Source: Pelobates cultripes
Taxonomy: Eukaryota; Chordata; Amphibia; Anura; Pelobatidae
Direction: 5' to 3'
Length of the DNA stretch: 64,000 nt
Assembly (NCBI GenBank): GCA_933207985.1
Contig: OW240916.1
Span: 137,606,122-137,670,121, forward strand
In this document: one piece after another, positions 1,859 through 44,450 of the stretch
How the letters are laid out: each line of letters opens with the position of its first letter
Numbering within the stretch: position 1 is the stretch's first letter
Made by a program: the position numbers and the translations under genes
Notes under the pieces: model-generated
What the model was told of the DNA's origin: nothing
What the model saw: only the letters and a program-made list of their open reading frames with translations
The model's database searches: none

Positions 1859-3012
1859 CAGGGTGCGGCAGAAGTGACTAAGCAGTTTGTAGGGGACAAT
1901 GCTCGGGCTGTGGTAGGGGGAGGCAGGTGCACCTGGTCTTATTGTGTTTCGTCCGTCACCCCATTTTAGTAGCCAATATAGTTTGGATCGGAATACATCG
2001 AGGCTTTGGCGTGCGGGCGTATTTTGAAAACAACCAGTCTGTGATCGCGACGCAAAGAGCTCTTCGGCGATGGTTCAAAATTCTGCGCAACAACGCTGTT
2101 CCTAATGCGAACACAATTCGGTCATGGGTTAGGTGGTTGGAGTAAACTGGAACCATGCTTAAAAGAGGTACATATGGCCGACACAGGTCCATAAGAACAC
2201 CGGAAAACGTGCAGCTGGTGAGGGCAGCAATTGAGCTGTCGCCAGAACATTTGGCTCGAAAGCATGCTGTTGTATGATGTAGGACCGCAGTCTGAGGAGG
2301 ATTCTTCGTTTAGATTTCTAGTTTTATCCCTACAAGATGATGTTGGCTCAGGAATTGAGTGTAGCAGATTATGCCAACCGCAGAAATTTGTGTGAGCAAA
2401 TGCTTGCACAGATCCCTCCCGCAGCAACTTTCTTCAGTAGCGAAGAGGGACATTTTCACCTCAGTGGAGTTGTGAATAAGCAAAATCTCTGCTACTGGGC
2501 TCAAAATAACCCCCGAATGATTCATGAAAGACCGCTACATTCCCCTAAACTAACGGTGTGGTGTGCCGTATCACAATTGGGAGTTATAGGCCCGTACTTT
2601 TTTGAGAAGGAAGGCGTGACCGTGAATTCTGAATGTTATGTCTCAATGTTGGAAAATTTCCTGCAGCCCAGAATGGAAGAGACTGTTGAAGAAGAGGAAT
2701 TGGTTCCAACAGGATGGGGCTACTGCCCACACAGCCCAAAATACATTCAATGTTTTAAAAGAAATGTTTCCCGGACGTCTGGTCTCTCTGAGGGGTGATG
2801 TGGGGTGGCCGTCGCGGTCACCAGATTTGAGCATTTGCGATTTTTTTCTCTGGGGATATATAAAGGAAAAAGTGTTCAAACATTGCCCTCACACCCTACC
2901 AGAGCTAAGGGAGCAGATTATTGAAGAAGTTAACGCCATACGCTGTGATATGTGTGAACGAGCTGTACAAAACTTGGCTGTAAAAAAACATGGAAAAAAA
3001 AACCCATAATGT
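1859..3012 (+). mobile_element. Decayed DD41D (rosa-like) mariner element
   Basis: A TA is followed at 1859 by CAGGGTGCGGCAG, a plausible terminal repeat start. The reading frames then give an N-terminal DNA-binding region (FENNQSVIATQRALRRWF, about 2026-2080) and an IS630/mariner catalytic region. The second Asp is in WFQQDGATAHTA and the third in SPDLSICDFF, with 41 residues between them, so the spacing is DD41D. The matching 3' terminal repeat is not recognisable, so the right end looks truncated. I know DD41D elements mainly from insects. Confidence 0.75.
1960..3009 (+). pseudogene. DD41D mariner transposase, broken
   Basis: The transposase is split over three frames. The DNA-binding part ends at a stop near 2143, and the linker 2145-2336 has several stops. 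Frame 2337-2798 carries the first catalytic block, and the reading shifts near 2690 into frame 2638-3009 with the second and third. The first catalytic aspartate appears replaced by glutamate: SSEEGHFHLSG where relatives have SSDEAHF. HYANRR-like and ERPLHSPKLTVWCAV blocks between are typical of the family. It cannot be active. This is not a host gene. Confidence 0.8.
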
Positions 3013-6511: not shown

Positions 6512-9115
6512 CTGCAGTACAGGTCTTAGCTCAGAGTAACTAATAGAAGTTCCTGCTTAATTAGGAGCCTCCATCTCTCTGACTGAAGTAGAGCTTGGGA
6601 GGTGCTGCATGGCAGATTACAGATAAGAAGTCAAACTCTTACTTTATAGCGGTGGTGCCAGGACACTCCTTGCCCCATAATCACTACAGAGTGCTGTAGT
6701 TCACAGGATGCATGGAGTGTAGTTAAAAAACAAGTATTTAGTACTGGGGCATTAATAAATGTTATATATATACATATATATATAATTATATGTAAAGTTT
6801 TTTAGTGGATTGCATTGCTAGGGGTTCATGCCTCTGTTCTCTGTGTTTTTGCTAAATGTATATTGCGCATCTTTATAGTAACCCTTAGCTTCAAGCTTGT
6901 TTTCACACATATTCACACCTAATGAATTTATTTTTGCTAATTTAGTTTCTGGGGGGAGAGGTTGATAGCGTCCACGGAAACCAATGCAATATTCCAGTCG
7001 ATTGTCCTACTTATGTACTCTTTGTCAATGGTTCTCATCCAGTGTGTCATGGCCATAAGCCACCCCAGAGTGTGTCAAGAACAAACTGATTTTATGGCTG
7101 TAAAACGTTGGCAATAACATTTTGATCTGTGAAATACAAAGGCTAAAGAAATTAATTTTATTCGGAACGTATATATGCATGCATTGTACATGTACTTCTC
7201 TATTAATGTTAATGTTGCAAGCAGAGAAGGATTAACCATAAGGTAGCCAGCCACCTAGTGCCTAGGGGTTAGACAGGGGCCCGATAACTTTGATTTTGCT
7301 CTTGGCCCCATTCACCATCCCTATGTGAAGAATAACAGCAAGTGATACATTTATAACTTGTCTTTGGCCCTGTGGGATCTTAATCCTTGCAAATAAATGT
7401 GAGGTTTTGTTTCATTGAACTGTGCCTTATTCACAAAAGGTTGTGAATCACTGCTTACTAATAACATGATTATATGCTACAATTTTGAGTTCTAAAATAA
7501 ATACTAGTTCTTTAATTTAACATTAAATCTGTAATATGTGCTCTTGTAAGATATGCATAACACCACCATATTCATCAGAAATCAGAAGCAAGGTTATTTT
7601 GCTGATCTATAATCAGCTTTTCCTAAATACTTTTCACTTTTGCAATTCTAATCTATTACTGCAATTCTAATCTATTACTGCACGGTATAGTTTCCAAAGA
7701 CTTTCAGCCACTGGCAGTCATGAAAAGTTTTGGAAAATAAGCTCTAACAATAAATGGCTGCTTGTAGAAGAAAGTAAAATTATAGTAAAATAATAAAATT
7801 CTAAAAGCAGAATAATAATCTACTCAAACATTAAGACATTTTAAAAACGAGAACGGGTCATAGAAATTACTTGATTGGAAGTGAATAAATTTTTAAGAGT
7901 ACAATATCAACCACATTTTCAATTGATTATAACTAGTAATTTTCTTGGCTCATTATAAAGCTATTTAACATTTTCTCCATCCCGTACCTTGTACTGAAGA
8001 CGTACTTTTCTTTTATAACAAATTTAAGGTACCTTGATATTTATAGACATATAGGCAAGCATCAAGCTATTAATTTAGAAGCACATTATAGCTTCTGAAA
8101 TTTGTGAGTACAATTTCAATACCTTAGGTACTGTAACCCAATTTATTTTGTCACTGTAATTCTTTCTTCATTTATGCATTTTTTTCCATGTGCACCAAGT
8201 AGATTAATTGCACATATACTTTGGAAACCTCATCGCTATCATAAAGTACTGTTCCTTATCATAAGTCATGTTTTAAAATTACATGTAAAACACATTAAAC
8301 TATTGTCAGCTTTTCATGATTACTTTAGATCATCACATTAAATATTACTACTTCTTCAGCAGTCAACAGCTGTATATATCACATTTCAAATGTAAGAGTC
8401 ATAGTGCTCTGGTTATACTAGGTTAGAAATTGGAAGCTATAAGGTGTTTTTTTTTTAAATAATCATTATTAAAATGTGTCTTGTGGGGCATGATTCTGTG
8501 CTCCTGTAAATGAATTGTAATCAGTGGATGACATTTTACTCCGATTTAGTGAATGATTTTATTAATAGGCAGCTTTATGTATTTAATCAACCTAACTGCG
8601 CCATATGAGATTTTCTTTTTTGAGGAAAACTATTAAATAATAATAAAAAAAATCCTCAAAACACCTGTTGTACATTAAAATAATGCTAAGCAATATGCGC
8701 AGCAGACTTCTAGATGCCATGAAATATTAGAGTTGGTGACTTAGCAGTGACTCATAACTCCCTGCCCCATGTGCAAGTCGGTGTGAATTAGGGACTGCTC
8801 TGGGGCTATCATGTCATCTCATCATGTGCTGGAACGTGTCTTGTCAAAATCCCTTTGACTTTCTCCCCATTCTGTGCACTAAATGATGAGTATACAACTG
8901 GAAATGAGATGCCAAATTCTTTGGCCAGCTTCTGTGCCCTCTATTAAGTCAATGGAGCAGTCTCCTTGAACAAAACCCCATGTATAGATATGACCCCACA
9001 ACATATAAAGAGTCAAATGCATAGTCAATTTCAAGGTCAGAAATAAAAGTTTTCTTAATAATATAAAACAAATTGAGAACGTTTTCCCCACCATCCTTAC
9101 AAAATAATGCCTCCA
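6512..9115. other. AT-rich intronic or flanking sequence
   Basis: A short TA/AT tract is near 6765-6790, a tandem doublet near 7645-7680 (GCAATTCTAATCTATTACT), and degenerate dispersed repeats near 7020-7450. I see no exon. The next trpm3 exon, for S5, is not found here and may lie beyond position 1 or in the gap. Confidence 0.5.
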
Positions 9116-9215
9116 NNNNNNNNNNNNNNNNNNNNNNNNNNNNNNNNNNNNNNNNNNNNNNNNNNNNNNNNNNNNNNNNNNNNNNNNNNNNNNNNNNNNN
9201 NNNNNNNNNNNNNNN
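9116..9215. other. Assembly gap, 100 N
   Basis: Exactly 100 N, the usual placeholder for an unsized scaffold gap. Open frames that cross it are artefacts. Confidence 0.99.
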
Positions 9216-9352
9216 CAGCCGCCTGACCGCTCTTCACAGAGCGCTCGGGCGGCTGCAGTATTTAAAGGGCCGGCCCAGGAACGCGGCCGGCCCCCAGGTG
9301 CCGCGGCCCACCGGGAAATTTCCCGGTATCCCGGTGGGCCAGTCCGGCCCTG
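9216..9352. mobile_element. Right end of a GC-rich hAT-like element
   Basis: This GC-rich block ends GGGCCAGTCCGGCCCTG. Its reverse complement CAGGGCCGGACTGGCCC looks like a hAT terminal repeat. It is followed by GCCAGCAC, a possible 8-bp target site. The left end is lost in the N gap, so the duplication cannot be checked. Confidence 0.55.
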
Positions 9353-9515
9353 GCCAGCACTACATACAAACACACGCCTGCATTCAAACGCAAACCCTAC
9401 ATGTACACTATACAAAACATGCTTACATTCAAACACTGCTCACAAATAAGACCCTGCAAGGATGGGCAAATGGTAGATCTCCAGCTGAGTTGTACGACAG
9501 ACCCTTGGACTAGAG
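9353..9515. repeat. Fragment of the repeat family seen at 49-50.7 kb
   Basis: The order CACGCCTGCATTCAAA, ACATGCTTACATTCAAACAC, CCCTGCAAG, GGGCAAATGGTAGATCT matches the block at 50555-50720 piece by piece. The two are diverged copies of one dispersed repeat. Confidence 0.75.
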
Positions 9516-13505: not shown

Positions 13506-14598
13506 ACTCGTTTGGCTTCCAATATCATTTCTATGCAGATGACATGCAAATCTACCTGTCCTCTCCTGATCTCTGCCCGTCCCTCTTGACTAGTGTCTCT
13601 GACTGCCTCTCTGCTGTTTCTAACTGGATGGCTGCCCACTTCCTTAAACTAAATTTGACCAAAACTGAAATTCTGGTCTTTCCTCCCTCAAGTGTTGTTA
13701 CTCCTGTGTCTGTCTCCCTCCAAGTCAACGGTGCTACCATCAGCTCAACCATGCAGGCTCGCTGCCTAGGTGTTCTCTTTGACTCCGACCTCTCCTTCAA
13801 GCCTCATGTTCAATCTATCGCCAAATCCTGTCATTTCCATCTCAAAAACATTGCGCGCATCTGCCCCGCCTTAACGCCAGATACGACTAAGGTGTTGTTC
13901 CATTCCACTGTCCTTTCTCGCCTTGACTACTGTAATCCGCTTCTCAGTGGTCTTATGTGCTCCCAACTAGCACCGTTACAGTCCATAATGAATGCGGCGG
14001 CGAGGCTCATCTTCCGGTCCGCCCGCACCTCCCATGCCTCACCCTTCTGTCAGTCTCTACATTGGCTTCCTATAAAATATAGAGCTCAATTTAAAATTCC
14101 GGTTCTTGCTTTCAAATCTCTACATAATGCTGCTCCCACCTACCTATCCTCCCTTATACACAAGTATGTCCCGTCTAGGCCCTTACGATCTGCTGAAGAC
14201 TTACGTCTATATTCTGTCCATACTCCCACCTCTGATGCTCGCCTTCAAGATTTCTCAAGGGCTGCACCGTTCCTGTGGAACTCGCTTCCCTCCTCCGTTA
14301 GATGCTCACCCAGTCTCCACTCATTCAAAAAATCATTAAAAACCCACTTCTTCATAAAAGCGTATCAATTAAACTGTTAATAGCTCCTGACAGATTCCTC
14401 TTCTGCAACTGTCATTAGTCTAATACTATCCTTACCTTTTTGTGTCATTTTACCCCACTCCCTCTAGCATGTAAGCTCTGTTCCTGTGTGTCCAACTTGT
14501 CTGGTTACAACTACATGTCTGTTCGTTCACCCATTGTAAAGCGCTGCGGAATTTGACGGCGCTCTATAAATATCATAATAATAATAATAATAATATAA
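13506..14598 (+). pseudogene. L2-like LINE, 5'-truncated ORF2 (C-terminal RT)
   Basis: The reading frame runs uninterrupted to 14380, starting just before the reverse-transcriptase catalytic box (FYADDMQIYL). It continues through KLNLTKTEILVF, RCLGVLFDSDLSF, LHWLPIKYRAQFKI and the tail RAAPFLWNSLPSSVR. The 3' end has TGTAAAGCGCTGCGGAATTT and a short (AAT)n tail, as L2/CR1 elements do. Loss of the front part is ordinary 5' truncation at reverse transcription. It is the same family as the minus-strand copy at 21.9-25.1 kb. Confidence 0.85.
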
Positions 14599-16503: not shown

Positions 16504-18340
16504 CTGCAAAAAAGTTCAGCAATATCATCATTTTTGTGATTATTATCTACCATAATTTTGTAATTTCTCAAACATGAGTTCCATGCTACTATGGAATTCA
16601 CTGAATTCATGGATTTTTTCTACAACTAAGAAAACTTGTTGAGTGCAAGGTTGTCAGCAACTGTCTTAATATATAATTTACATTAATGATCTAGGTAAGC
16701 TAAACAATAGGTTCAACAGAAACAATATGTATATAACAATGTATATGCAATAAAATAGTGGCAACTTTATTTTACGCACACAAAACCATGCCAGGAAGGC
16801 TTAATTTAACCACAAACACAGTGTTTTAAAAAGATGCTAGTTTTGGTTGCAGTAACCGTTTAAATGATATTCCCTAGGCTCGAATATTTATTGGGGAAAC
16901 TTGGTAATGGTTCACTATTCATCCACTTAGTATGTATATAGGTAGGGTGAAATAAATTAAAAGCCATAATGCAAAAATACAGTTTGGCTAGTCCTGTGGT
17001 CACTGAACCAAAGGATACCAAGTTCCTTAGTTTGGGTTATATTACTTGTCACACCTCCCCACAACACTTTGCGATACAGTGCAACATTTTGGTGTCATAT
17101 TTGGCATGCACTAAACCAAGTAGTCACTGTTATACTCAAAATTATGCTTGCTTGATTAAAGTATCTCAGCAATTCTGGCATGTCATATTATACTCAACCA
17201 TCCCTCAGTAATAATAATAAGCTAAGGTCATGGTCTACTGGCTAAGTTGGATTTGTGTGTTGTGTGCCAGATTCAATACCTATATGACCAGAGGGTGCCT
17301 AATCTGGACCTATAAACAAAAGTTGCACCACACCACTCTATCCAATATGGGACACAGAGATGCCCAGGCCTCTGGTCACAAGTAGTAAAGTCACTCTTTA
17401 GTGGCTCCATGTCCCCAGAGCCCTAGTTACCAGGCCTTAAAACCTGCCATGAGAAAACAAGTATTAGGGAGGGGAGCAGTAAAATCTATTAAACTAGATA
17501 TACATACACATTTTAAAAAGATCTGCAGTTATGTTGTTTGAAAACCTGACAAGATGGGGCTACGACTAGGAATCCTCTGGCCTTACATTGAGTAAGGTTT
17601 AATAGGACCAAAGGAATTTGACACATTTTAGCACTAAGGGTTTTAACACAAGAGGACTGGGCACATGGGCATCCGCAATAATTTTTTTCAAGGGAGGGAG
17701 GGGGGGGGGGAACAATTGTAATGACATCCATGCTCAGCCACTTTTTGACAGTGTCATAAGGGGAGGGGCTTGGTCATTGCACCCATAAAGTGCAAGCATG
17801 CAAAGGGTTGAGAAACATGCAAAATCGTATTAGAAAAATCAAGTTCAAGAACCAGCTCAGGCCCATATATCTTTCTTGTTATTTGTTTATTGGTTTTATT
17901 TCCCTACATGAATAAGTCTGTCTTATCTCTGTAATTTTCAATCTTACTCTTTGTCTTTCCGTAAATTACCCTTAAATCAAATGTCCATAGATGCATCTTC
18001 CCCATCCCTTAGCCCATCTGACCCTAATATATATCTCTCTCCCACAGTCTGATATTTAAACTTACCCAGTCCAGCAAAGCACCCAGAGCTCAATCAGCTG
18101 TTCCACTGCCATTTGCAACAGGTAGCCTTCTGGAAGACTGTTTCCCCTCCCACCCTACACCTCGCCCACCCACCCCAAGCTCATTTCCTCATTTATAGAT
18201 AGTCTCCCACACAACTTTCATTCTCCTGAAATGACAGGTGCAAACACTGATCAGCACACCCTTCCAATCTCTTAACCCTATAGAATACATACCCTCTCTC
18301 AAATAGCTATATATCACACAAATATTATATACTTTTATTG
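16504..18340. other. Start of the 31-kb intron, little recognised
   Basis: No exon, coding element or clear repeat boundary is seen. There is a poly-G stretch near 17696-17710. From about 18050 the sequence becomes C-rich and may be the 5' untranslated part of the LINE that follows. Confidence 0.45.
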
Positions 18341-18523
18341 AATTTTTAATTTTAGTTTTTCACTATTTGTGTTTCATTTTCATCTACACACCTCATACCA
18401 CTAACCTGAATCCAAATATGAATATACTGTTTTTCTTAATAACCCTTTTCTCCCTACAATTTTGTTCACATCACTACCGCCAAAAGCACACATCTCAAAC
18501 CGGAAAACAAATTATCAAGCACA

Positions 18524-19348
18524 ATGGCCTGCTCTGTTGCTGTAACTTATCTGCTGAGTGCTGGTATAGACAGAGTTATAAAAAATAGCCCTCCTACCCC
18601 CACCTCACAAAATTATAAGGTATCCCATTTACGATATGGCCAAACAAAAATGATGTCCAAATTCCTATTTCTTATGGTACTTGCCCTTGCAAATGATGTG
18701 GAGCCTAACCCTGGTCCCCCAGCTAATTCTAATCCTAATCTCCCCACTAAAAAAGGCCTCTCTTTTGTGCAATGCAACATCCGTAGTTTACTCCCTAAAC
18801 TAGATGCACTGCAAGCCTGGTGTTCCTATTACAAACCAAAAATCATTGTGCTCTCAGAATCATGGTTAACAACTAATATACCAGACTCTGCCATTGCAAT
18901 ACAGGGTTTTTCATGTTTTAGAAATGACAGAGCAAAGAGAGGAGGAGGAATTGTTATTTATGTTGACAATTCCATAAAGTTTACCCCCTTACAAAACTTT
19001 AGCCCTCCTGCCACCTTTGATTTTCTTTCTGGCATAATTGAGATCCCGTGCAGTAAATCAATCATTGTTGCAGGAATCTACCGCCCACCTAGCTCCCCAG
19101 TGCATTCCCTATCTGACATAGCACATCTCCTGAGTGAAACCATAGCTCAAAACCTAAAAATTGAACTGTTGGTCTTTGGAGATTTTAATATTGATTGGCT
19201 GAATCCTAAAAATAATAGTTCTTACTCGCTGTTTATGACTTTGCAGCTAATACAATTAATCTACTCCCCAACTCGCATAAACATTAAAGCCATAACCATA
19301 CCCTACTCGATTGGATTCTGTCCACTTCTCCTGTCAGAATCCAGGTAG
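18524..19348 (+). pseudogene. LINE ORF2 N-terminus: leader, 2A motif, APE endonuclease
   Basis: The frame gives 274 residues. A hydrophobic run (KFLFLMVLALA) after Met43/Met44 is followed at once by DVEPNPGP (18695-18718), the exact 2A consensus D-V-E-x-N-P-G-P. The endonuclease follows with FVQCNIRSL (Asn), VLSESWL (Glu), GGGIVIYV, AGIYRPPSS and VFGDFNIDW (Asp/Asn). After a frameshift near 19300 the SDH motif is read as SDRC, so the catalytic histidine is lost. The 2A motif would make the ribosome skip between Gly and Pro, releasing the leader. Confidence 0.8.
18695..18718 (+). other. 2A-like ribosome-skipping motif (DVEPNPGP)
   Basis: These codons read Asp-Val-Glu-Pro-Asn-Pro-Gly-Pro, matching every fixed residue of the 2A consensus. 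2A-like sequences are known in some APE-type LINEs, for example of sea urchins. Skipping would occur between 18715 and 18716. The hydrophobic run just before it resembles a signal sequence, so the leader might also be secreted. That is inference. Confidence 0.75.
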
Positions 19349-20046
19349 CAGGTGTTCTCCCTAACTGTTTCAGTGATCGCTGTTTAGTGTACTGCATGCG
19401 CAAAATAAAGGCTACTAAATCCTCTCCCAAGGTTAAAATCATCAGGTCCTTCAAAAAATGTAATCTTGAATCCTTTCTTAATGACATCAAGAACCTCCCA
19501 TGACACAGATTAAACATTATCCCAGATCTAGACTGTGCAGTTGAATTCTTTCAGTCTGAACTCCTACAAGTTTGGAATTTGCAAGGCCTGCTGCGTAAGG
19601 TGAGAGTAAAAGGAGCACATATGAACTTGATCACACCTGACCTCTTCCAAATGTACCAGTTTCAGGATTCATTGAAGTCAAAGTTAAAACATACTGGCTC
19701 TATGAACAGTGGCGAAATATATGCACAAATATTTCTGTAAAAATCTGAACAATAACCTATCAAACCCTAGAAACTTTTGGAAAGTTATAAATAAATTACA
19801 AACGCCCCCAATCCTCTCCCAACCCTCCACTGTCAACGTGGACAACCAAACCCTGCATTTTCCCTTAGATGTAGCAAATGCCCTTAACAATTATTTTGTC
19901 GGATGCTCCACAACCCTGATTGCCAAGCTAATAAATGACACACATCCTGAAACTACAAATGTGGATCAGGCCCCACTAAATTTGCAAAGACCCAATATAG
20001 ACAAGTTCATTTTTAGACCTGTACCTATTAGTGTCATTAAAATCTA

Positions 20047-21094
20047 AATCTAAATCTAATTAATAATCTAAAAATGAAAAACCAGTCTGGACCTGATCAA
20101 ATACCAGCAATGTTGTTGAAGCTCAGTGCGCCAGCAATTGCTAAACCTGTCACAGCCCTAATTAACGAATCCTTGGTGTCTGGATACATGCCCAAACTTT
20201 GGAAGACTGCAAGGGTAGTGCCTATCCATAAAAGTGGTGACACTTTGGTTTCTAACTATCGCCCAATATCATTGCTTTTAGTATTGTCAAAAATGCGTCC
20301 ATACGCAACTATGTGAGTAGTACCAACAATCTAACTCTCTGACCCCTGATCAATCGGGTTTTCGCCCAATCACTCCACTACAACTGCTCTCTTAAAAGTT
20401 TGCAATGACATCCAAACTGGCATGGAACAAGGAGACATAAGTGGAGCTATTTTCCTTGATTTGGCAAAGGGCTTTGACACAGTAGACCCCGACATTCTAC
20501 TGCACAAACAAAAAAACTCAGGTATTGGTGACTGTCCGCTAACCTGGTTTCGATCATATGTATCGGATTGCTCACAGTATGTGTCCGTTTCTGACAGTGA
20601 TTCCCTCCCTCTCCCAGTCACGTGTGGAGTTCCCCAAGGTTCCATTCTCGGCCCCCTACTATTCACATTATTTATAAATGATCTGCCTAATGTCTGCAAA
20701 TCTTCAAATGTACACATATACGCAGATGACAGTAATCTATGCAAGCAAATCCAATCTACCGCAGCTTGAGGCTGTGCTCCAAGACCAGTTTACAGAGGTA
20801 GAAAAGTGAATAGCAGATAACAAACTCTTCCTAAACACTGACAAAACTGTCACAATGATCTCTGGAACAGTACCTAAATTACACAAATTACACAATTCCC
20901 ATCTATCCATCAACACAAATTCAAAAAGCACACTGACCGCAGTTCACTCTTTCAAATACTTGGGTATGCTGTTCGACAATCTATCTTTTGGCCTCCACAT
21001 AGAAAAACTTGCATCTAAACTTTATCCAAAACTAGGTGCCCTGTACAGAAACAAATCCTGCCTAAGCCCTACAGTAAAGGAAAACTATAACTGA
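20047..21094 (+). pseudogene. LINE reverse transcriptase, broken
   Basis: Frame fragments at 20074-20316, 20422-20769 and 20855-21094 carry [58 protein letters not shown] and IYADDSNL. The catalytic DD of YADD is intact. Shifts near 20310 and 20780 and the lack of a continuous frame make it inactive. It belongs to the same element as the 2A-bearing endonuclease upstream. Confidence 0.8.
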
Positions 21095-21924: not shown

Positions 21925-24900
21925 TCCATATTATTATTATTTTATTATTTATATAGCGCCAACAAATTCCGTAGCGCTGTACAATGGGTGGACTAACAGA
22001 CATATAATTGAGATCAGACCACTGACGTACAGGAACAGAGGGGGTTGAGGACCCTGCTCGATGAGCTTACATGCTAGAGGGAGTGGGGTATATTGACACA
22101 AAGGGTTAAAGTAGGGGAATTAAATAGTTTGTTACAGGAGGGTTTATTGAGTGCTTGGTAGGTCATTTTTGACAGGTACAGGAACGGAGTCATGGGGTGG
22201 GGGATGAGAAACCTGCTGACAGTTTAATTGATACGCTTTAATGAAGAAGTGAGTTTTCAAAGATTTTTTGAAGGAATGGAGGCTGGGTGAAAGTCTGATT
22301 GAGGGGGGAAGGGAGTTCCATAGAATAGGTGCAGCCCTGGAGAAGTCTTGAAGGTGAGCATCAGAGGTGGGGATCCGGGCAGAGGATAGGCGTAGGTCTT
22401 GGGCTGAGCGCAGGGGTCTCGACGGGACATACTTGTGTATGAGGGAGGATAGGTATGTTGGAGCAGCATTATGTAGGATTATTATTTGTAAGCAAGCGCC
22501 AGAATTTTGAATTGGGCCCTATATCTAACTGGAAGCCAATGCAGGGACTGACAGAGCGTGGAGGCGTGGGAGGTGCGACCGGACAGGAAAATAAGCCTCG
22601 CAGCCGTATTCATTATAGATTGCAGCGGTGCAAGCTGGGAACATGTAAGACCGGTGAGAAGGGGATTGCAATAGTCAAGGCAAGAGAGAACAACAGCATG
22701 AACCAGTACCTTAGCCGCGTCCGGCGTTAGATATGGGCGGATGCGCGCTATGTTCTTGAGTTGGAAGCAACAGGATTTAGCTATCGATTGAACATGGGGA
22801 GTAAAAGAGAGATCAGAACCAAAAAGAACCCCTAGGCAGCGAGCCTGGGAGGTAGAGGTGATAGTAGCGCTGTTGACTTGGATGGAGACAGACACAGGAG
22901 TAGCAGCACTTGAGGGAGGAAAAACTAGAAGTTCTGTTTTGGACAGGTTGAGTTTAAGGAAGTGAGCAGCCATCCAGTTGGAAATAGCAGAGAGGCAGTC
23001 AGAAACATGAGTCAAGGTGGGCGGAGAGAGATCAGGGGAGGACAGGTAGATTTGCGGGTCATCTACATCTAAATGGTACTGGACGCCAAAAGAGCTGATG
23101 AGTTTACCAAGGGAGGCAGTATAGATAGAGAACAGTAGGGGGCCGAGGACAGAACCTTGGGGGACGCCGACAGGGAGGGGTTGGGGAGAAGAGGCAGAGC
23201 CAGAGAAAGAAACACTGAAGGAGCGCTGAGAGAGGTAGGAGGAGCACCAGGAGAGAGCAATATCCCGTAGACCAAAGTTACGGAGAATGTGAATAAGCTG
23301 TTGATGATCAACAGTGTCAAAGGCGGCAGAAAGATCAAGGAGGATTAGGATAGAGTATTGGCCGCGAGATTTAGCAGCAATTAAATCGTTGGATACTTTG
23401 GTCACAGCAGTTTCAACAGAGTGACCAGTGCGGAATCCAGACTGAAGGGGGTCAAGCAGAGAGTTGGATTCAAGAAAGTCTGTTAATCTGGCATAGACAA
23501 CTCTCTCGAGGATCTTGGAGGCAAATGGCAGTAGCGAGATAGGGCGGTAGTTGGATGGGAAGTTGGGATCAAGGTTGGGCTTTTTCAGAATTGGGGTTAC
23601 GGTTGTATGTTTGAAGGCAGAGGGAAATGTGCCAGAGGAAAGGGAGAGATTGAAAATGTTAGCGAGAGGAAGAGCAAGAGAGGGAGACAAAGTGCGGATG
23701 AGATGCGAGGGAATAGGATCGAGGGAGCAGGTGGTGGGGCGGGAGGACAGGAGCAGAGCAGAAACCTCTTGTGCTGTAGCAGGTGCAAATGAGCTTAGGA
23801 TGGCAGGGGGAGTGGGGTTGGGTGGTGTATTGATACTGGTTGGAGAAAGATTAGAGATCTCTTTCCTGATTGTAGAGATCTTCTCAGTGAAATGAGATGC
23901 AAAGTTTGTGGCGGACAAGGTGGTGGAAGGAGGGGGAAGAAGTGCATCAAAAGTGTGAAACAGGTGTTTGGGTTGGTGGGACAGTGTGCTTATGAGGATG
24001 TTGAAGTAGCTTGCTTTTGCAGAGGAAAGAGCCATGCTGTAGGAGCGCAGCATAAATTTATAGTGGACAAAGTCAGATGCAAAGTGAGACTTTCTCCAGC
24101 AGCGTTCAGCAGTTCTGGAACATTTTTGGAGGTAACGGGTCAGCTTGGTGTGCCAGGGTTGTAGTTGGGGGCGCTTGCTGCGTTTAACTGTAGGAGGTGC
24201 CATGATGTCAAGTTGAGAGGAGAGAGTGGAGTTGTAGAGTGAGGTTGCAGAGTTAGGGCAGTTGTGATTTGAGATGGGTAAAAGCAGTGTTTGGAGTTTA
24301 GTGGAGAAGTGCTGGAGGTCGAGAGAGTTGAGGTTTCAGCGAGGTTGGAGAGTGGATGGTGGTGAGATTTTGGTATGGGGTATGCAGATGTTAAATGTTA
24401 GCAGATGGTGGTCAGACAAAGGAAATGGAGCAGTGGCGAGATCAGAGGTGGTACAGAGATTGGTGAAGATGAGGTCAAGAGTGTTTCCTGCAGTGTGAGT
24501 TGCTGAGGAAGAAATCTGTGTGAGTCCAAAGGAGGAGGTTACAGAGAGCAGACGAGAGGCATCAGGGCAGTTGAGCTTGTTGATAGGGATATTGAAGTCC
24601 CCAAGTATGAGAGAGGGAATGCTAGAGGAAAGAAAGTGGGGTAACCAGGAGGAAAAGTGTTCAATGAATAGTTTAGGGTGACCGGGGGGGCGATAGATGA
24701 TGGCAATTCTTAAAGGAGTGGGCTTAAAAAGGTGTACAGTGTGAACTTCAAAGGAAGTAAAGGATAGGGCAGGGGCAGGGAGGATAGGTTGAAAGGTACA
24801 TTGAGGGGAGAGAAGGATGCCTACACCACCTCCTTTACAGTCGAGTCTAGGAGTATGGGAGAACTGTAGACCACCGAAGCATAAAGAAGCAGGAGTAGCG

Positions 24901-25460
24901 GTATCGGATGGAGATAGCCAGGTCTCAGTGAGTGCCAGTATTGTGAGAGAGTTAAAGATGAGGAGGTCATGTATAGCTGTAGATTTGATATTACTACAAA
25001 TGGAGCGAGCATTCCAGTGCACACTGAATTTTGGTAGAGGAGGATAGACTGCAGGGTATTTGGAGGAGGTTTGCATGGTTTCTGGTTATTTTAGTGTGAG
25101 CAGATGAGGTGAGGGGCCCTGGGTTGGGAGAAACGTCACCAGCTGCCAGAAGTAGGAGGAGAGATAGAGACAGGAGGTGTGAATGGGTTTTATATGGGCG
25201 GTGACTAGGGTGAGATTGGGTTAGAGCAGGAGAGAGAGAATAGAGAAATTAGTGCAGGGCTTGAGATGAGAGAAGGGGGGAGTGTAGCAGAGAGGGATTC
25301 ATGTAAATGTGAGTGTGTTGTTGAGGGAAGTGGGTGGAAGGGGATATATTGATCCTTAGGGAGATGAGAGAGAAGGAGAGGAGGAGAATATAGAGCATTG
25401 CTCTGATGGGTAGGTAATTAGAGGAAAGGAGAATGAGCATAAGGGAGGAGAAGGAGTGAG
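21925..25460 (-). mobile_element. Long L2-like LINE, ORF2 nearly whole
   Basis: In minus-strand order there is a 5' part (25460-25080, non-coding, purine-rich on the plus strand), endonuclease, reverse transcriptase, C-terminal domain and a 3' tail. The tail (GTACAGCGCTACGGAATTTG then TATATAAATAATAAAATAAT) ends near 21925. The same family gave the fragments at 13506, 43430 and probably the tail at 58026. The 5' end is interrupted by the hAT element at 25461 and may resume after 26512. Confidence 0.8.
22482..25076 (-). pseudogene. L2 ORF2: endonuclease plus reverse transcriptase, one stop
   Basis: From 25076 to 22482 the frame is open except for one TGA at 24338-24336, probably from CGA. The endonuclease has HWNARSICSN, LALTETWLS, ILGDFNIPI and PLSDHHLLTF, so its Asn, Glu, Asp and His residues are present. 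The reverse transcriptase has [24 protein letters not shown] and [14 protein letters not shown]. The YADD box reads DVDD: tyrosine and alanine are changed but both aspartates remain. At 22482 a small insertion of AAT units shifts the frame, and the C-terminus continues in another frame to about 22257. Confidence 0.85.
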
Positions 25461-35859: not shown

Positions 35860-36835
35860 TGGTGTTATCGCTCTCATACTCTCTCATGCTGGTCACTGGA
35901 AGTTCAACATTGCACCTCAGAACTCTCTGAGGATCTGAAAACAAGAATTGTTGCTCTACATAAAGATGGCCTAGGCTATAAGAAAATTGTAAAGACCCTG
36001 AAACAGAGCTGCAGCACGGTGGGCAAGACCATACAGCGGTTTCACAGGATAGGTTCCACTTTGAACAGGACTCGCCATGGTCGACCAAACAAGTTGAGTG
36101 CACGTGTCTTTGGGAAATAGACGTATGAGTGCTGCCAGCATTGCTGCAGATGTTGGAGGGGTGGGGTCAACCTGTCAGTGCTCAGACCATACGCCGTACA
36201 CTGCATCAAATTGGTCTGCATGGCTGTCGTCCCGGAAGGAAGCCTCTTCTAAAGATGATGCACAAAAAGGCCGCAAACAGTTTGCTGAAGACAAGCAGAC
36301 TAAGGACATGGATTACTGGAACCATGTCCTGTGGTCTGATGAGACCAAGATAAACTTATTTGGTTCAGATGGTGTCAAGCATGTGGGGCGGCAACCATGT
36401 GAGGAGTACAAAGACAAGTGTGTCTTGCCTACAGTCAAGCATGGTGGTGGGAGTGTCATGGTCTGGGCCTGCATGAGTGCTGCCGGCACTGGAGAGCTAC
36501 AGCTCATTGAGGAACCCATGAATGCCAACATGTACGGTGACATACTGAAGCAGGGCATGATACCCTTCTTTTGGAAACTGGGCCGCAGGGCAGTATTCCA
36601 ACATGATAAAGACTCCAAACACACCACCAATACTACCACTGCCTTGCTAAAGAAGCTGAAGGTATAGCTGATGGACTGACCAAGATGTCTCCAGACTTAA
36701 ACCCTCAAACAGAAAGTGGGGGAGCTAAAGGTCTCTAACATCCACCAGCTCTGTGGTGTCGTCATGGAGGAGTGGAAGAGGACTTCAGTGGAAACCTGTG
36801 AAGCTCTGGTGAACTCCATGCCCATGAGGATTAAA
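35860..36835 (+). pseudogene. Tc1 transposase, broken
   Basis: A helix-turn-helix region (ELSEDLKTRIVALHKDGLGYK, GRPNKLSARV) ends in a stop near 36117. After a frameshifted part, 36270-36667 carries NHVLWSDETKINLFG with the first Asp, GGGSVMVWACMS and VFQHDKDSKHTT with the second. Stops follow, and at about 36694 SPDLNP runs straight into unrelated residues, so the catalytic glutamate region (normally PIEHLW) is deleted. The C-terminal remnant continues to the TTAA at 36831. Confidence 0.85.
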
Positions 36836-38535: not shown

Positions 38536-40095
38536 CACCATGTTCCAAATTATTATGCAAATTATATTTTTGTAATTTACCTAAATAATTGATGTAAATA
38601 ACAGTCAGCATAATTCTCATGTTATCAACTATTAAGAGTACAATTCAAATTTTATTGAACAAACCTTCTAATGATAACAGTACATAAAAAACTTACAATG
38701 CACTGTTCCAAATTATTATGCACAGTAAGTTTCAAAAGACTTTATAGGTTGTAAAGAACTGAAAATTGTAATTTGTTGTGTTTGGAGCATAGTTACTGAA
38801 ATCAAAAGCTATTTCAATCAAACTTATAACAACATTTTAACTTTTTAAACATTTTAACAGGTCACGTTACATTTTAACATAGGACCCCTTATTTGATAGC
38901 AGCTTCACAAGTCTTGCATCCATTGAACTTGTGAGTTTCTGGACAGTTTCTGCTTGAATTTGTTTGCAAGATGTCAGAATAGCCTCCCAGAGCTGCTGTT
39001 TGGATGTAAACTGCCTCCCACACTCATAGATCTTTTGCTTGAGGATGCTCCAAAGGTTCTCAATAGGATTGAGGACAGGGGAGGATGGAGGCCACACCAT
39101 GACTTTCTCTCCTTTTATCCCCATAGCAGCCGTTTATGCAGAGGTATTCTTTGCAGCATGAGATGGTGCATTGTCATGCATAAGGATGATTTTATTACGG
39201 AATGCATAGTTCTTCCTTCTGTACCAGGGAAGAAAGTGGTCAGTCAGAAACTCCACATACTTTGCAGAGGTCATCTTTACACCTTCGGGGACCCTAAAGG
39301 GGCCGACCAGCTCTCTTCCCATGATTCCGGGCCAAAACATGACTCCACCGCCGCCTTGCTGACGTTGCAGCCTTGTTGGAACAGGGTGGCCGTCCACCAA
39401 CCATCCACTACTCCATCCATCTGAACCATCCAGGGTTGCACGGCACTCATCAGTGAACAGGACTGTTTGAAAATTAGTCTTCATGTATTTTTCTGCCCGA
39501 TGCAGCCGTTTCTGCTTGTGAGCATTAGTTAGTGGTGGCCGAAATAGAAGGTTTATGCACAGTTGCAAGACTCTGGAGGACTCTACACCTTGATGTCCGT
39601 GGGACTCCAGAGGCACCAGCATCTGTTTGCTGCTATGTAATATTATTTTAGCAGCTGCTGTCTTGATCCGATGCATGGATCTGGCAGAACTCTTCCTCAA
39701 TGTGCCTTTATCTGCATGAACCCGTCTGTGCTCTGAATCAGCCACAAATCTCTTAATAGTGCGATGATCACGTTTAAGTTTTCGTGAAATATCTAATGTT
39801 TTCATACCTCGTCCAAGGCATTGAACTATTTCACTCTTTTCGGCAGCAGAGAGACCATTTTTCTTCCCCATATTGCATGAAAATGGTGCTCTGCTTAATA
39901 ATGTGGAACACCCTCCTTTAGTAGTGTTCCTTAAATTGGGCTCACCTGGCAATCTAATTATCACAGGTGTCCGAGATTGTTTTCAGTGATCAAAAGAGCC
40001 ATGACACACAATGCCATCCATGAGTTAAACTGAAAAACAAAATATTTAATCTTTGTGACACAAATAGAATTTGCATAATAATTTGGAACAGGGTG
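38536..40095 (-). mobile_element. Tc1/mariner element of DD37E type, nearly complete
   Basis: TA at 38534-38535 and 40096-40097. The ends, CACCATGTTCCAAATTATTA on the left and inverted CACCCTGTTCCAAATTATTA on the right, are terminal repeats of about 28 bases with one mismatch. The 1560 bases hold one transposase on the minus strand. DD37E spacing matches the vertebrate TRT group as I know it; that label is an inference. Confidence 0.88.
38867..39964 (-). pseudogene. DD37E transposase, one internal stop
   Basis: The native start is probably the Met in MGKKNGLSAAEKSEIV, near 39871. The paired-like DNA-binding region includes MKTLDISRKLKRDHRTIKRF. The catalytic residues lie in TVLFTDECRATLDG (Asp), IILMHDNAPSHAAKN (Asp) and LNPIENLWSILKQK (Glu), with 37 residues between the last two. 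GGGGVMFWPGI is also typical. A single in-frame TAA at 39136-39134 lies 13 residues after the second Asp; otherwise the frame is open to the end. SPVLNP has Val where relatives have Asp, a non-catalytic site. Confidence 0.88.
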
Positions 40096-43395: not shown

Positions 43396-43429
43396 ATCTG
43401 TGTGCATGTGACAATCAGAAACCACACAA

Positions 43430-44450
43430 ACCTCATCCCAATACCATGCCATCTATCCCCATCTACCAATATTCAGTGTGCACTCTGGAACACCCGCTCC
43501 ATCTGCAGCAATATGAAATCAACAGCCATACACAACCTCTTCATCTCAAATTCTTTCAGACTACTTTGCACTCACTGAGACTGGGCTGTCCCCCTCTGAT
43601 AGCACTACTCCTGCTTCCTTTGTTTTGGTAGACTACAGTTCTCCCTCACTCCGAGACCAAATAACTGTAAAGGAGGTGGTGTAGGCATCTTTCTCTACCC
43701 TTAAAGAACCTTTCAACAATCTTCCCTGCTCCTGCTCTATCTTTTCTGTCCACTGAAGTTTACACTGTCTGCCTATTTAAACCCACTACTTTAAGAATTG
43801 CCATAATGTATCACCCCACCGGTCATCCTAGGCTATACATTGAACACTTTTCTTCCTGGCTACCCTATTTCCTCTCCTCTAGCACACCTTCCCTTATTCT
43901 TGGGGACTAATATCCCAATAAACAACTCTCAACTGCCCTAAAGCCTCTCGTCTGCTCTCTGTAACCTTCTCCGTTGGACTCAAAAAGTGGTCTAATTCAT
44001 CAACTCATACAGAAGGAAAGCATCTTGACCTAGTCTTCACCAATCTCTGTACCAACTCTAAATTATCCAAATGTTCCATTTCCTCTATCTGACCACCACC
44101 TGCTGACCTTTGACATCGGCATACCCCGTACCCAAATTATACCACCCTCACCACATCAGTCTTGAGAAACCTCATCTGTCTTGACCTACTGCGATTCTCC
44201 ACCAACCTCCAAACTCTCCTTTCACCCATCTCAAACCTCATCTTCCCTAACACTGCAACCTCCCTCTACAACTCCACTTTCCCCTCTCAACTAGACATTG
44301 TGGCACATCCTACATTTAAACGCAGCAAGCACCCCCAATTACAACCCTTGCACACCAAGCTGACCCGATACCTCCAAAAATGTTCCAGAACAGCTGAATG
44401 CTGCCGGAGAAAGTATTGTTCTGCATCTGACTTTCTCCACTATATATATG
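43430..44450 (+). pseudogene. L2 LINE endonuclease region, decayed
   Basis: Frames hold relics of the L2 family seen on the minus strand at 25 kb. They include IYQYSVCTLEHPLHLQQ (frame-shifted endonuclease start), ATCCTAGGCTATACATTGAA-type DNA, and [20 protein letters not shown] then SASDFLHY, the linker before the RT. It breaks off at 44445. The endonuclease residues are scattered over different frames. Confidence 0.7.

What the first reader, a model, noticed from the sequence alone, without database searches (positions are those of the whole stretch)
18650..18730. LINE with a 2A ribosome-skipping motif right after a signal-like leader
DVEPNPGP at 18695-18718 matches every fixed residue of the 2A consensus and lies in frame just before an APE endonuclease. 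The 11 residues before it (KFLFLMVLALA) are hydrophobic. 2A-like motifs are known in some APE LINEs of invertebrates. In a frog CR1/L2-group LINE, with a leader that could be exported, it suggests a translational trick for making a separate small peptide.
Basis: partly seen in the sequence, partly recalled or inferred. Interest (0 to 1): 0.8.

Follow-up and report, generated by a model that had tools for sequence, protein, structure and literature searches.

The report
Frog retrotransposon with 2A-split leader peptide
A jumping gene in a frog genome carries a viral-style "skip" signal that probably makes ribosomes cut its protein in two, and the small first piece starts with what looks like a tag for the cell's secretory system, a layout that recurs in many related jumping genes.

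Summary
DVEPNPGP lies at 18695-18718 in frame with an APE endonuclease; chance predicts at most 4e-4 such motifs per window. The window copy is a decayed member of a young family. Of 106 copies read from its genome (window copy included), 103 keep NPGP; the majority motif is DVESNPGP. Five intact copies have one 1068-1070 aa ORF: hydrophobic N-terminus, about 100 aa leader, leucine-rich stretch, 2A, endonuclease, reverse transcriptase, and no ORF1 in the shared upstream part. 2A-bearing LINEs are known (Odon 2013, seen as a citation), and a leucine-rich stretch before the core is a known StopGo context (PMC12846837), so the run beside the motif need not be a signal peptide. What I found in no paper read is a separate signal-like N-terminus about 100 aa upstream, which recurs in 2A-LINEs (46 of 85 by my strict rule, against 0 of 23 LINE proteins without 2A). 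Skipping and ER targeting are inferred. Against: the leader body shows no clear purifying selection within this family.

The parts
17850..21084 (+). LINE copy: 5' UTR piece, leader, 2A, endonuclease, reverse transcriptase; 3' truncated and frameshifted
   Evidence: 88% DNA identity to L052 and L053 over this span; to L049 from 18023
18406..18588 (+). N-terminal leader with hydrophobic, signal-like start (family start codon is CTG here; next ATG at 18418: MNILFFLITLFSLQFCS...), in a different frame from the 2A in this copy
   Evidence: translation; alignment with an intact copy
18566..18569 (+). 4-base insertion relative to an intact copy; accounts for the frame change between leader start and 2A
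   Evidence: alignment; exact place may be off by a base or two
18659..18694 (+). hydrophobic run KFLFLMVLALAN immediately before the 2A core (family: KFLLLMLLALAN)
18695..18718 (+). 2A/StopGo core DVEPNPGP (family majority DVESNPGP); predicted break between Gly 18713-18715 and Pro 18716-18718
18755..19345 (+). APE endonuclease part in frame with the 2A (the frame is lost before the domain ends)
   Evidence: Pfam PF03372 E=3.8e-6; frames
20350..20766 (+). reverse transcriptase fragment
   Evidence: Pfam PF00078 E=8.4e-18
22482..25398 (-). second LINE of another clade with the same layout: ATG 25398 MLYILLLSFSLISLRINIS..., one in-frame TAA, LLLLLAAGDVSPNPGP (core 25137-25114), then endonuclease and reverse transcriptase
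   Evidence: tree position

Best explanation
The motif is a 2A (StopGo) element of a young, single-ORF APE LINE family in this frog. Translation of an intact element starts at a hydrophobic, signal-like N-terminus and makes a leader of about 102 residues that ends in a leucine-rich stretch plus NPG. The ribosome then fails to form the Gly-Pro bond, releases the leader, and goes on to make a separate endonuclease-reverse transcriptase that starts with proline. The N-terminal sequence probably directs the leader (and any unskipped fusion) to the ER membrane, while skipping leaves the replication enzyme in the cytosol. Shown here: motif, its place, conservation in the family and in distant LINE proteins, intact long ORFs, hydrophobic N-termini and their association with 2A. 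Inferred: skipping, ER targeting, fate and purpose of the leader. The window copy itself is a decayed member.
For: 103 of 106 genomic copies keep NPGP, 91 keep D[VI]ExNPGP. Five intact copies read in 9 kb stretches have one ORF of 1068-1070 aa and are 97.3-99.6% identical in DNA; no other sense ORF of 70 aa or more lies in their shared upstream part. EN and RT match Pfam profiles nearly whole in one intact copy. Among LINE proteins picked by the left context only (hydrophobic, small residue, G, [DNGST][VI]), NPGP follows in 90 of 94, or 37 of 38 non-redundant. Signal-like N-termini by my strict rule: 46 of 85 2A+ proteins vs 0 of 23 2A- (clusters at 60% identity: 24 of 52 vs 0 of 23, p=2.4e-5; at 45%: 7 of 24 vs 0 of 19, p=0.012); shuffled leaders mean 7.9, max 17 of 85. 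In the reference copy only the coding frame gives the hydrophobic start (KD11 2.99 against 0.39 and 0.96). PMC12846837 (sections read): four upstream classes tested, the leucine-rich motif 6 among them, all supported StopGo (about 92.7% to almost 100%).
Against: No skipping assay. The family has N at p11 in 105 of 106 copies, where a strong G preference is reported for p12=D (PMC12846837); 60 of 67 non-redundant relatives have G. Within the family, leader changes shared by 5 or more copies are 9 nonsynonymous to 4 synonymous (omega 0.73), against 12:16 (0.27) in EN: no clear purifying selection on the leader body (88 of 106 copies). The leader frame is intact in 64 of 106 copies only; two copies with 1033-codon open frames downstream (L009, L010) have an A-run frameshift in the leader. 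My signal rule is not SignalP; the cleavage site is ambiguous, and the window copy fails the strict rule and passes only the hydrophobic-core one. By the same rules 20 (strict) and 43 (core) of 170 ATG frames of the window also pass, 12% and 25%. The copies were chosen by similarity to a query that holds the 2A.
Confidence: 0.68

Rival explanations
1. The hydrophobic run touching the 2A is itself the signal sequence. Translation starts at the MM just before it (18650 in the window) and gives a 20-odd residue 2A signal like those of sea urchin NLR proteins; the upstream leader is not coding.
For: MMSK precedes the run in 46 of the 48 loci printed (two of these places are held twice). Sea urchin NLR 2A signals of 26 aa do both jobs (PMC4981915, abstract and sections read). 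Copies with a broken upstream leader keep this part.
Against: The first in-frame ATG of intact copies lies about 80 codons earlier, and the frame from it to NPGP is open in 64 of 106 copies. In 85 relatives with 60-250 residues before NPGP, 60 have a hydrophobic core at the start of the protein. A leucine-rich run right before the core is a StopGo context found in RNA viruses at large (PMC12846837).
Confidence: 0.2
2. The 2A mainly throttles enzyme output: some ribosomes stop at it, so less endonuclease-reverse transcriptase is made in an element that has no ORF1. The leader has no job of its own. (Not exclusive of the best explanation.)
For: Single ORF, no ORF1 in the shared upstream part. 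The leader body drifts to near-background identity between families. The idea is recalled from Luke et al. 2014, which was not held.
Against: A hydrophobic N-terminus would not be needed, yet it goes with 2A: 60 of 85 with 2A and 2 of 23 without have the core.
Confidence: 0.35
3. Non-functional relic: the motif persists only because the copies are young.
For: Five full reads are 97.3-99.6% identical, so there was little time to decay.
Against: NPGP follows the left context in 90 of 94 LINE proteins, many of them only 25-40% identical to this element; EN changes shared by five or more copies show purifying selection, so the lineage was functional.
Confidence: 0.05
4. Conserved NPGP in LINEs serves something other than canonical skipping, because p14 is not E in most of them.
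For: In 67 non-redundant relatives p14 is H 19, E 18, S 14, Q 10, N 4, K 1, A 1; viral sites are almost exclusively E (PMC12846837).
Against: This family has E. p14=H is over 95% active in its natural context and E14Q 26% or 56% active in earlier tests (PMC12846837).
Confidence: 0.1

Closest known systems
2A-like sequences of APE-type non-LTR retrotransposons (Odon et al. 2013; seen only as a citation, and as mentioned in PMC4981915, PMC11512398 and PMC12846837)
   Same: APE LINE with a 2A core (title of the cited paper); that it sits near the N-terminus and goes with lack of ORF1 is recalled
   Different: A separate signal-like N-terminus about 100 aa upstream of the 2A, tested here over many LINE proteins; whether Odon et al. 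noticed it is unknown to me
2A-like signal sequences of sea urchin NLR proteins (Roulston et al. 2016, PMC4981915)
   Same: Hydrophobic targeting sequence combined with a 2A, predicted dual fate of skipped and unskipped products
   Different: There one 26 aa N-terminal segment does both jobs in a host gene; here the likely signal and the 2A are about 80 residues apart in a retrotransposon
Leucine-rich StopGo classes, motifs 2 and 6 (Li et al. 2026, PMC12846837)
   Same: Leucine-rich residues right before a D(V/I)ExNPGP core; p12=D and p15=S as in that class
   Different: p11 is N in this family instead of the favoured G
L1Tc 2A of Trypanosoma cruzi (recalled; cited in PMC4981915)
   Same: 2A in the protein of a non-LTR retrotransposon
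   Different: Different organism group; no relation tested here

Membership tests
2A / StopGo element | core D(V/I)ExNPGP | tested here: met
   DVEPNPGP in the window, DVESNPGP as family majority
2A / StopGo element | supporting upstream context (leucine-rich class, G at p11) | tested here: inconclusive
   leucine-rich run present; p11 is N in 105 of 106 copies instead of G
2A / StopGo element | in frame between two coding regions | tested here: met
   five full-length copies with one 1068-1070 aa ORF; not met upstream in the window copy
2A / StopGo element | Gly-Pro bond skipping | not testable with these tools
   needs a translation assay
APE-type LINE | APE endonuclease and reverse transcriptase in one ORF | tested here: met
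   PF03372 and PF00078 in one intact ORF, YADD at 787
APE-type LINE | many dispersed copies with a common 3' tail | tested here: met
   141 scored matches on many contigs, of 9714 candidates; TAAA-type tail in both of the two 3' ends printed
CR1/L2 group LINE | RT phylogeny with named clade references | tested here: inconclusive
   in the tree it sits with seven LINE proteins (SH-aLRT 99), one of them with a named host, the fish Oryzias melastigma; no named clade references
2A-like signal sequence (sea urchin type) | one short N-terminal segment acting as both signal and 2A | tested here: inconclusive
   possible start at MMSK exists, but the first ATG of intact ORFs lies about 80 codons upstream
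ER signal peptide | N-terminal hydrophobic core followed by a cleavage site | tested here: inconclusive
   hydrophobic core present (KD11 2.99 in the reference copy); cleavage site ambiguous; no trained predictor on hand

The most novel reading that the evidence does not exclude
A large class of single-ORF animal LINEs encodes a fast-evolving leader protein that is sent to the ER and is cut loose by ribosome skipping. The replication machinery of these retrotransposons would then be born at the ER membrane, and skipping efficiency, tuned by unusual p14 residues (H, S, Q, N), would set how much enzyme stays cytosolic.
Probability: 0.4. Interest if true: 0.8.

Novelty: new variant of a known kind. 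Interest (0 to 1): 0.58.

Why it matters
The 2A of LINEs has been explained (recalled, Luke 2014) as linked to doing without ORF1. If these proteins begin with an ER signal that is removed by skipping, the elements use the secretory pathway, which would be a new step in a LINE life cycle. The relatives also supply a natural set of StopGo variants (p14 = H, S, Q, N; p11 = N) unlike those usual in viruses, with which the rules of skipping can be tested directly.

Tried and rejected
Chance origin of the motif: rejected. A single decayed copy: rejected. My first guess that the frame change in the window copy sits in the A-run at 18580-18585: wrong; the window has a 4-base insertion just before it, while the A-run is longer in 11 of 106 copies (10 with 7 A, 1 with 8 A; 75 with 6 A; 20 not scorable). 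A 2065-aa open frame reported at C8:79497678 was an N-run. A first version of the 2A+/2A- comparison mishandled proteins that begin inside EN; one search replaces it and sets aside 20 ambiguous proteins. A first 106-copy substitution count was blurred by misaligned 5' ends; one search uses 88 copies. One search printed nothing (too strict a motif) and was redone. One scan of viral contigs gave no relative. The leader matches no Pfam family at E<=1 and nothing convincing among PDB sequences (best E=0.82). In the tree one row, P0155, carries a wrong 2A+ label (its match was NPGN). The protein searches scored only the 7995 and 7989 candidates sharing most words. A search for the second LINE family in the genome and a genome-wide motif count did not complete. 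Odon 2013, Luke 2014 and Rao 2025 were not held. No structure was predicted.

Full report
Observation. The window holds DVEPNPGP at 18695-18718 on the plus strand, in frame with an open stretch 18443-19348 that matches an APE endonuclease. The expected number of such motifs in six frames of the window is 4.7e-5 to 3.6e-4. The hydrophobic run KFLFLMVLALA is followed by one N before the motif.

The element. The window copy spans 17850-21084 and is 88% identical to intact copies. It is broken: the family start codon is CTG here, a 4-base insertion at about 18566 puts the leader start in another frame than the 2A, further frame changes follow in EN and RT, and the 3' end is missing. The own genome (3.09 Gb, 1162 contigs) gave 141 scored matches among 9714 candidates. 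They were ranked by similarity to a query that includes the 2A, so they lean towards intact motifs. I analysed 106 distinct copies of the 141, the window copy among them: NPGP is present in 103, D[VI]ExNPGP in 91; the commonest motif is ALANDVESNPGP (87 of 106). The P of DVEP is private to the window copy among these.

Anatomy of intact copies. Five copies read in 9 kb stretches have one ORF of 1068-1070 aa beginning MNPNI(TI)LL.LITLFSIQFCS, 102 residues (100 in the shorter form) up to NPG, then EN and RT. Pfam finds EN at 123-324 and RT at 617-872 in one of them; the leader matches nothing. The stretch shared between copies reaches from 385 to about 1250 bases upstream of the ORF, depending on the pair; it holds no sense ORF of 70 aa or more, while unrelated ORFs (413 and 273 aa in L049) lie farther out, beyond the shared part. 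A tandem-repeat search of one copy (L053) shows a 74-bp array of 6.8 units in this region; two printed 3' ends finish in TAAATAAATAA-type repeats. So this looks like a single-ORF LINE without ORF1. The best named relatives of the broken RT are Pelobates cultripes and Leptobrachium leishanense proteins; an intact copy is 92% identical to the Pelobates protein over 625 residues, whose contig (263,823,987 bases) is nearly as long as C6 here (263,808,332). I infer a Pelobates-like frog. The search with leader and endonuclease only listed no frog by name.

Relatives. Three protein searches gave 49, 139 (120 listed) and 119 proteins (the latter two scored only about 8000 candidates). Of 142 with at least 44 residues before EN, 87 have NPGP within 110 residues upstream; some of the other 55 have it farther away or with one change. 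To avoid picking by the motif, I anchored on the left side only: NPGP follows in 90 of 94, or 37 of 38 non-redundant. In 67 non-redundant motifs p11 is G in 60, p12 D 50 or N 12, p13 V or I in all, p14 H 19, E 18, S 14, Q 10, N 4, K 1, A 1. RNA-virus sites have E at p14 almost always, with H rare but over 95% active and E14Q 26% or 56% active (PMC12846837; sections 9, 10, 14 and passages read). A tree of 89 rows puts this family with seven LINE proteins, one of them from a named fish (SH-aLRT 99), and the second window LINE with Phyllobates and Leptobrachium LINEs (100); 2A presence is clustered (10 changes against 19.0 in shuffles, none of 500 as low; one row mislabelled).

The leader. In 85 proteins with 60-250 residues before NPGP, 46 have a signal-like N-terminus by a rule I wrote (uncharged hydrophobic 9-mer early, no acidic residue before it, small residue at -1 and small or aliphatic at -3) and 60 have the hydrophobic core; in 23 LINE proteins with at least 60 residues before EN and no 2A the counts are 0 and 2. 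Clustered at 60% identity: 24 and 33 of 52 against 0 and 2 of 23 (p=2.4e-5, 9.8e-6); at 45%: 7 and 13 of 24 against 0 and 2 of 19 (p=0.012, 0.0038). Shuffled leaders reach a mean of 7.9 and a maximum of 17 of 85 for the strict rule, 17.2 and 29 for the core. ATG frames of the window of 50 aa or more pass in 20 and 43 of 170. Twenty proteins were set aside as ambiguous (all). The most hydrophobic 11-mer of the leader starts in the first 25 residues in 64 of 85, 32.3 expected. Between families (500 pairs of 62 proteins with 35-80% EN identity) the leader body falls to median 24-30% identity (background 23%), while the 20-residue leucine-rich+2A stretch stays at 50-60%; four of those 20 residues, NPGP, are identical because the proteins were picked for it. 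The second LINE of the window, from another clade, has the same layout: an ATG at 25398 with MLYILLLSFSLISLRINIS, one stop, then LLLLLAAGDVSPNPGP.

Results against. Within this family I found no clear purifying selection on the leader: changes shared by five or more of 88 copies are 9 nonsynonymous and 4 synonymous (omega 0.73) against 12 and 16 in EN (0.27); power is low. The leader frame is intact in 64 of 106 copies; 14 are frameshifted, 12 have no well-aligned leader, 11 lost the ATG (8 of them with further damage), 5 have a stop. p11 is N, outside the favoured context. No trained signal predictor was available and no activity was measured.

Reading. The 2A is genuine and belongs to a known kind: 2A-like motifs in APE LINEs. 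The hydrophobic run next to it is best read as the leucine-rich StopGo context described in PMC12846837. The new element is the separate hydrophobic N-terminus far upstream, which makes the leader a candidate ER-directed product. Sea urchin NLR proteins give the precedent for combining targeting and skipping (PMC4981915: abstract, first part of the introduction section, bioinformatics and discussion sections, and passages). I found no description of this layout in LINEs in nine answered paper searches (listings) or in passages of PMC11512398, PMC5009743 and PMC4120745, but the main LINE-2A papers (Odon 2013, Luke 2014) and Rao 2025 were not held, so priority is open.

Noticed in passing
window 25398-22482 (-): A second LINE of a different clade with GDVSPNPGP; its frog relatives in Phyllobates, Leptobrachium and Ranitomeya have S at p14 and Gastrophryne has A, so E is absent while NPGP stays.
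   Followed up: partly
relatives: p14 of the LINE 2A motif is H, S, Q or N in 47 of 67 non-redundant motifs, unlike RNA viruses.
   Followed up: partly
L053:3151-3656 (orientation of the element): 74-bp tandem array, 6.8 units, 100% match, in the 5' region of an intact copy.
   Followed up: no
leader A-run, window 18580-18585: Homopolymer run is 7 or 8 A instead of 6 in 11 of 106 copies (20 not scorable), shifting the leader frame; recurrent slippage or assembly error.
   Followed up: partly
window 13507-14377 (+) and 43413-44447 (+): Two more fragments of the second LINE family, about 81% identical; the latter begins at EN without leader or 2A.
   Followed up: partly
window 2322-2798, 36098-36667, 39134-39982: Tc1/mariner-like transposase fragments, judged by eye from the translations.
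   Followed up: no
P0227, P0098: Relatives with two NPGP sites in one protein; in P0227 both follow a 2A-like context, in P0098 only the first.
   Followed up: no
window 8879-9439: A run of unknown bases lies inside this stretch.
   Followed up: no
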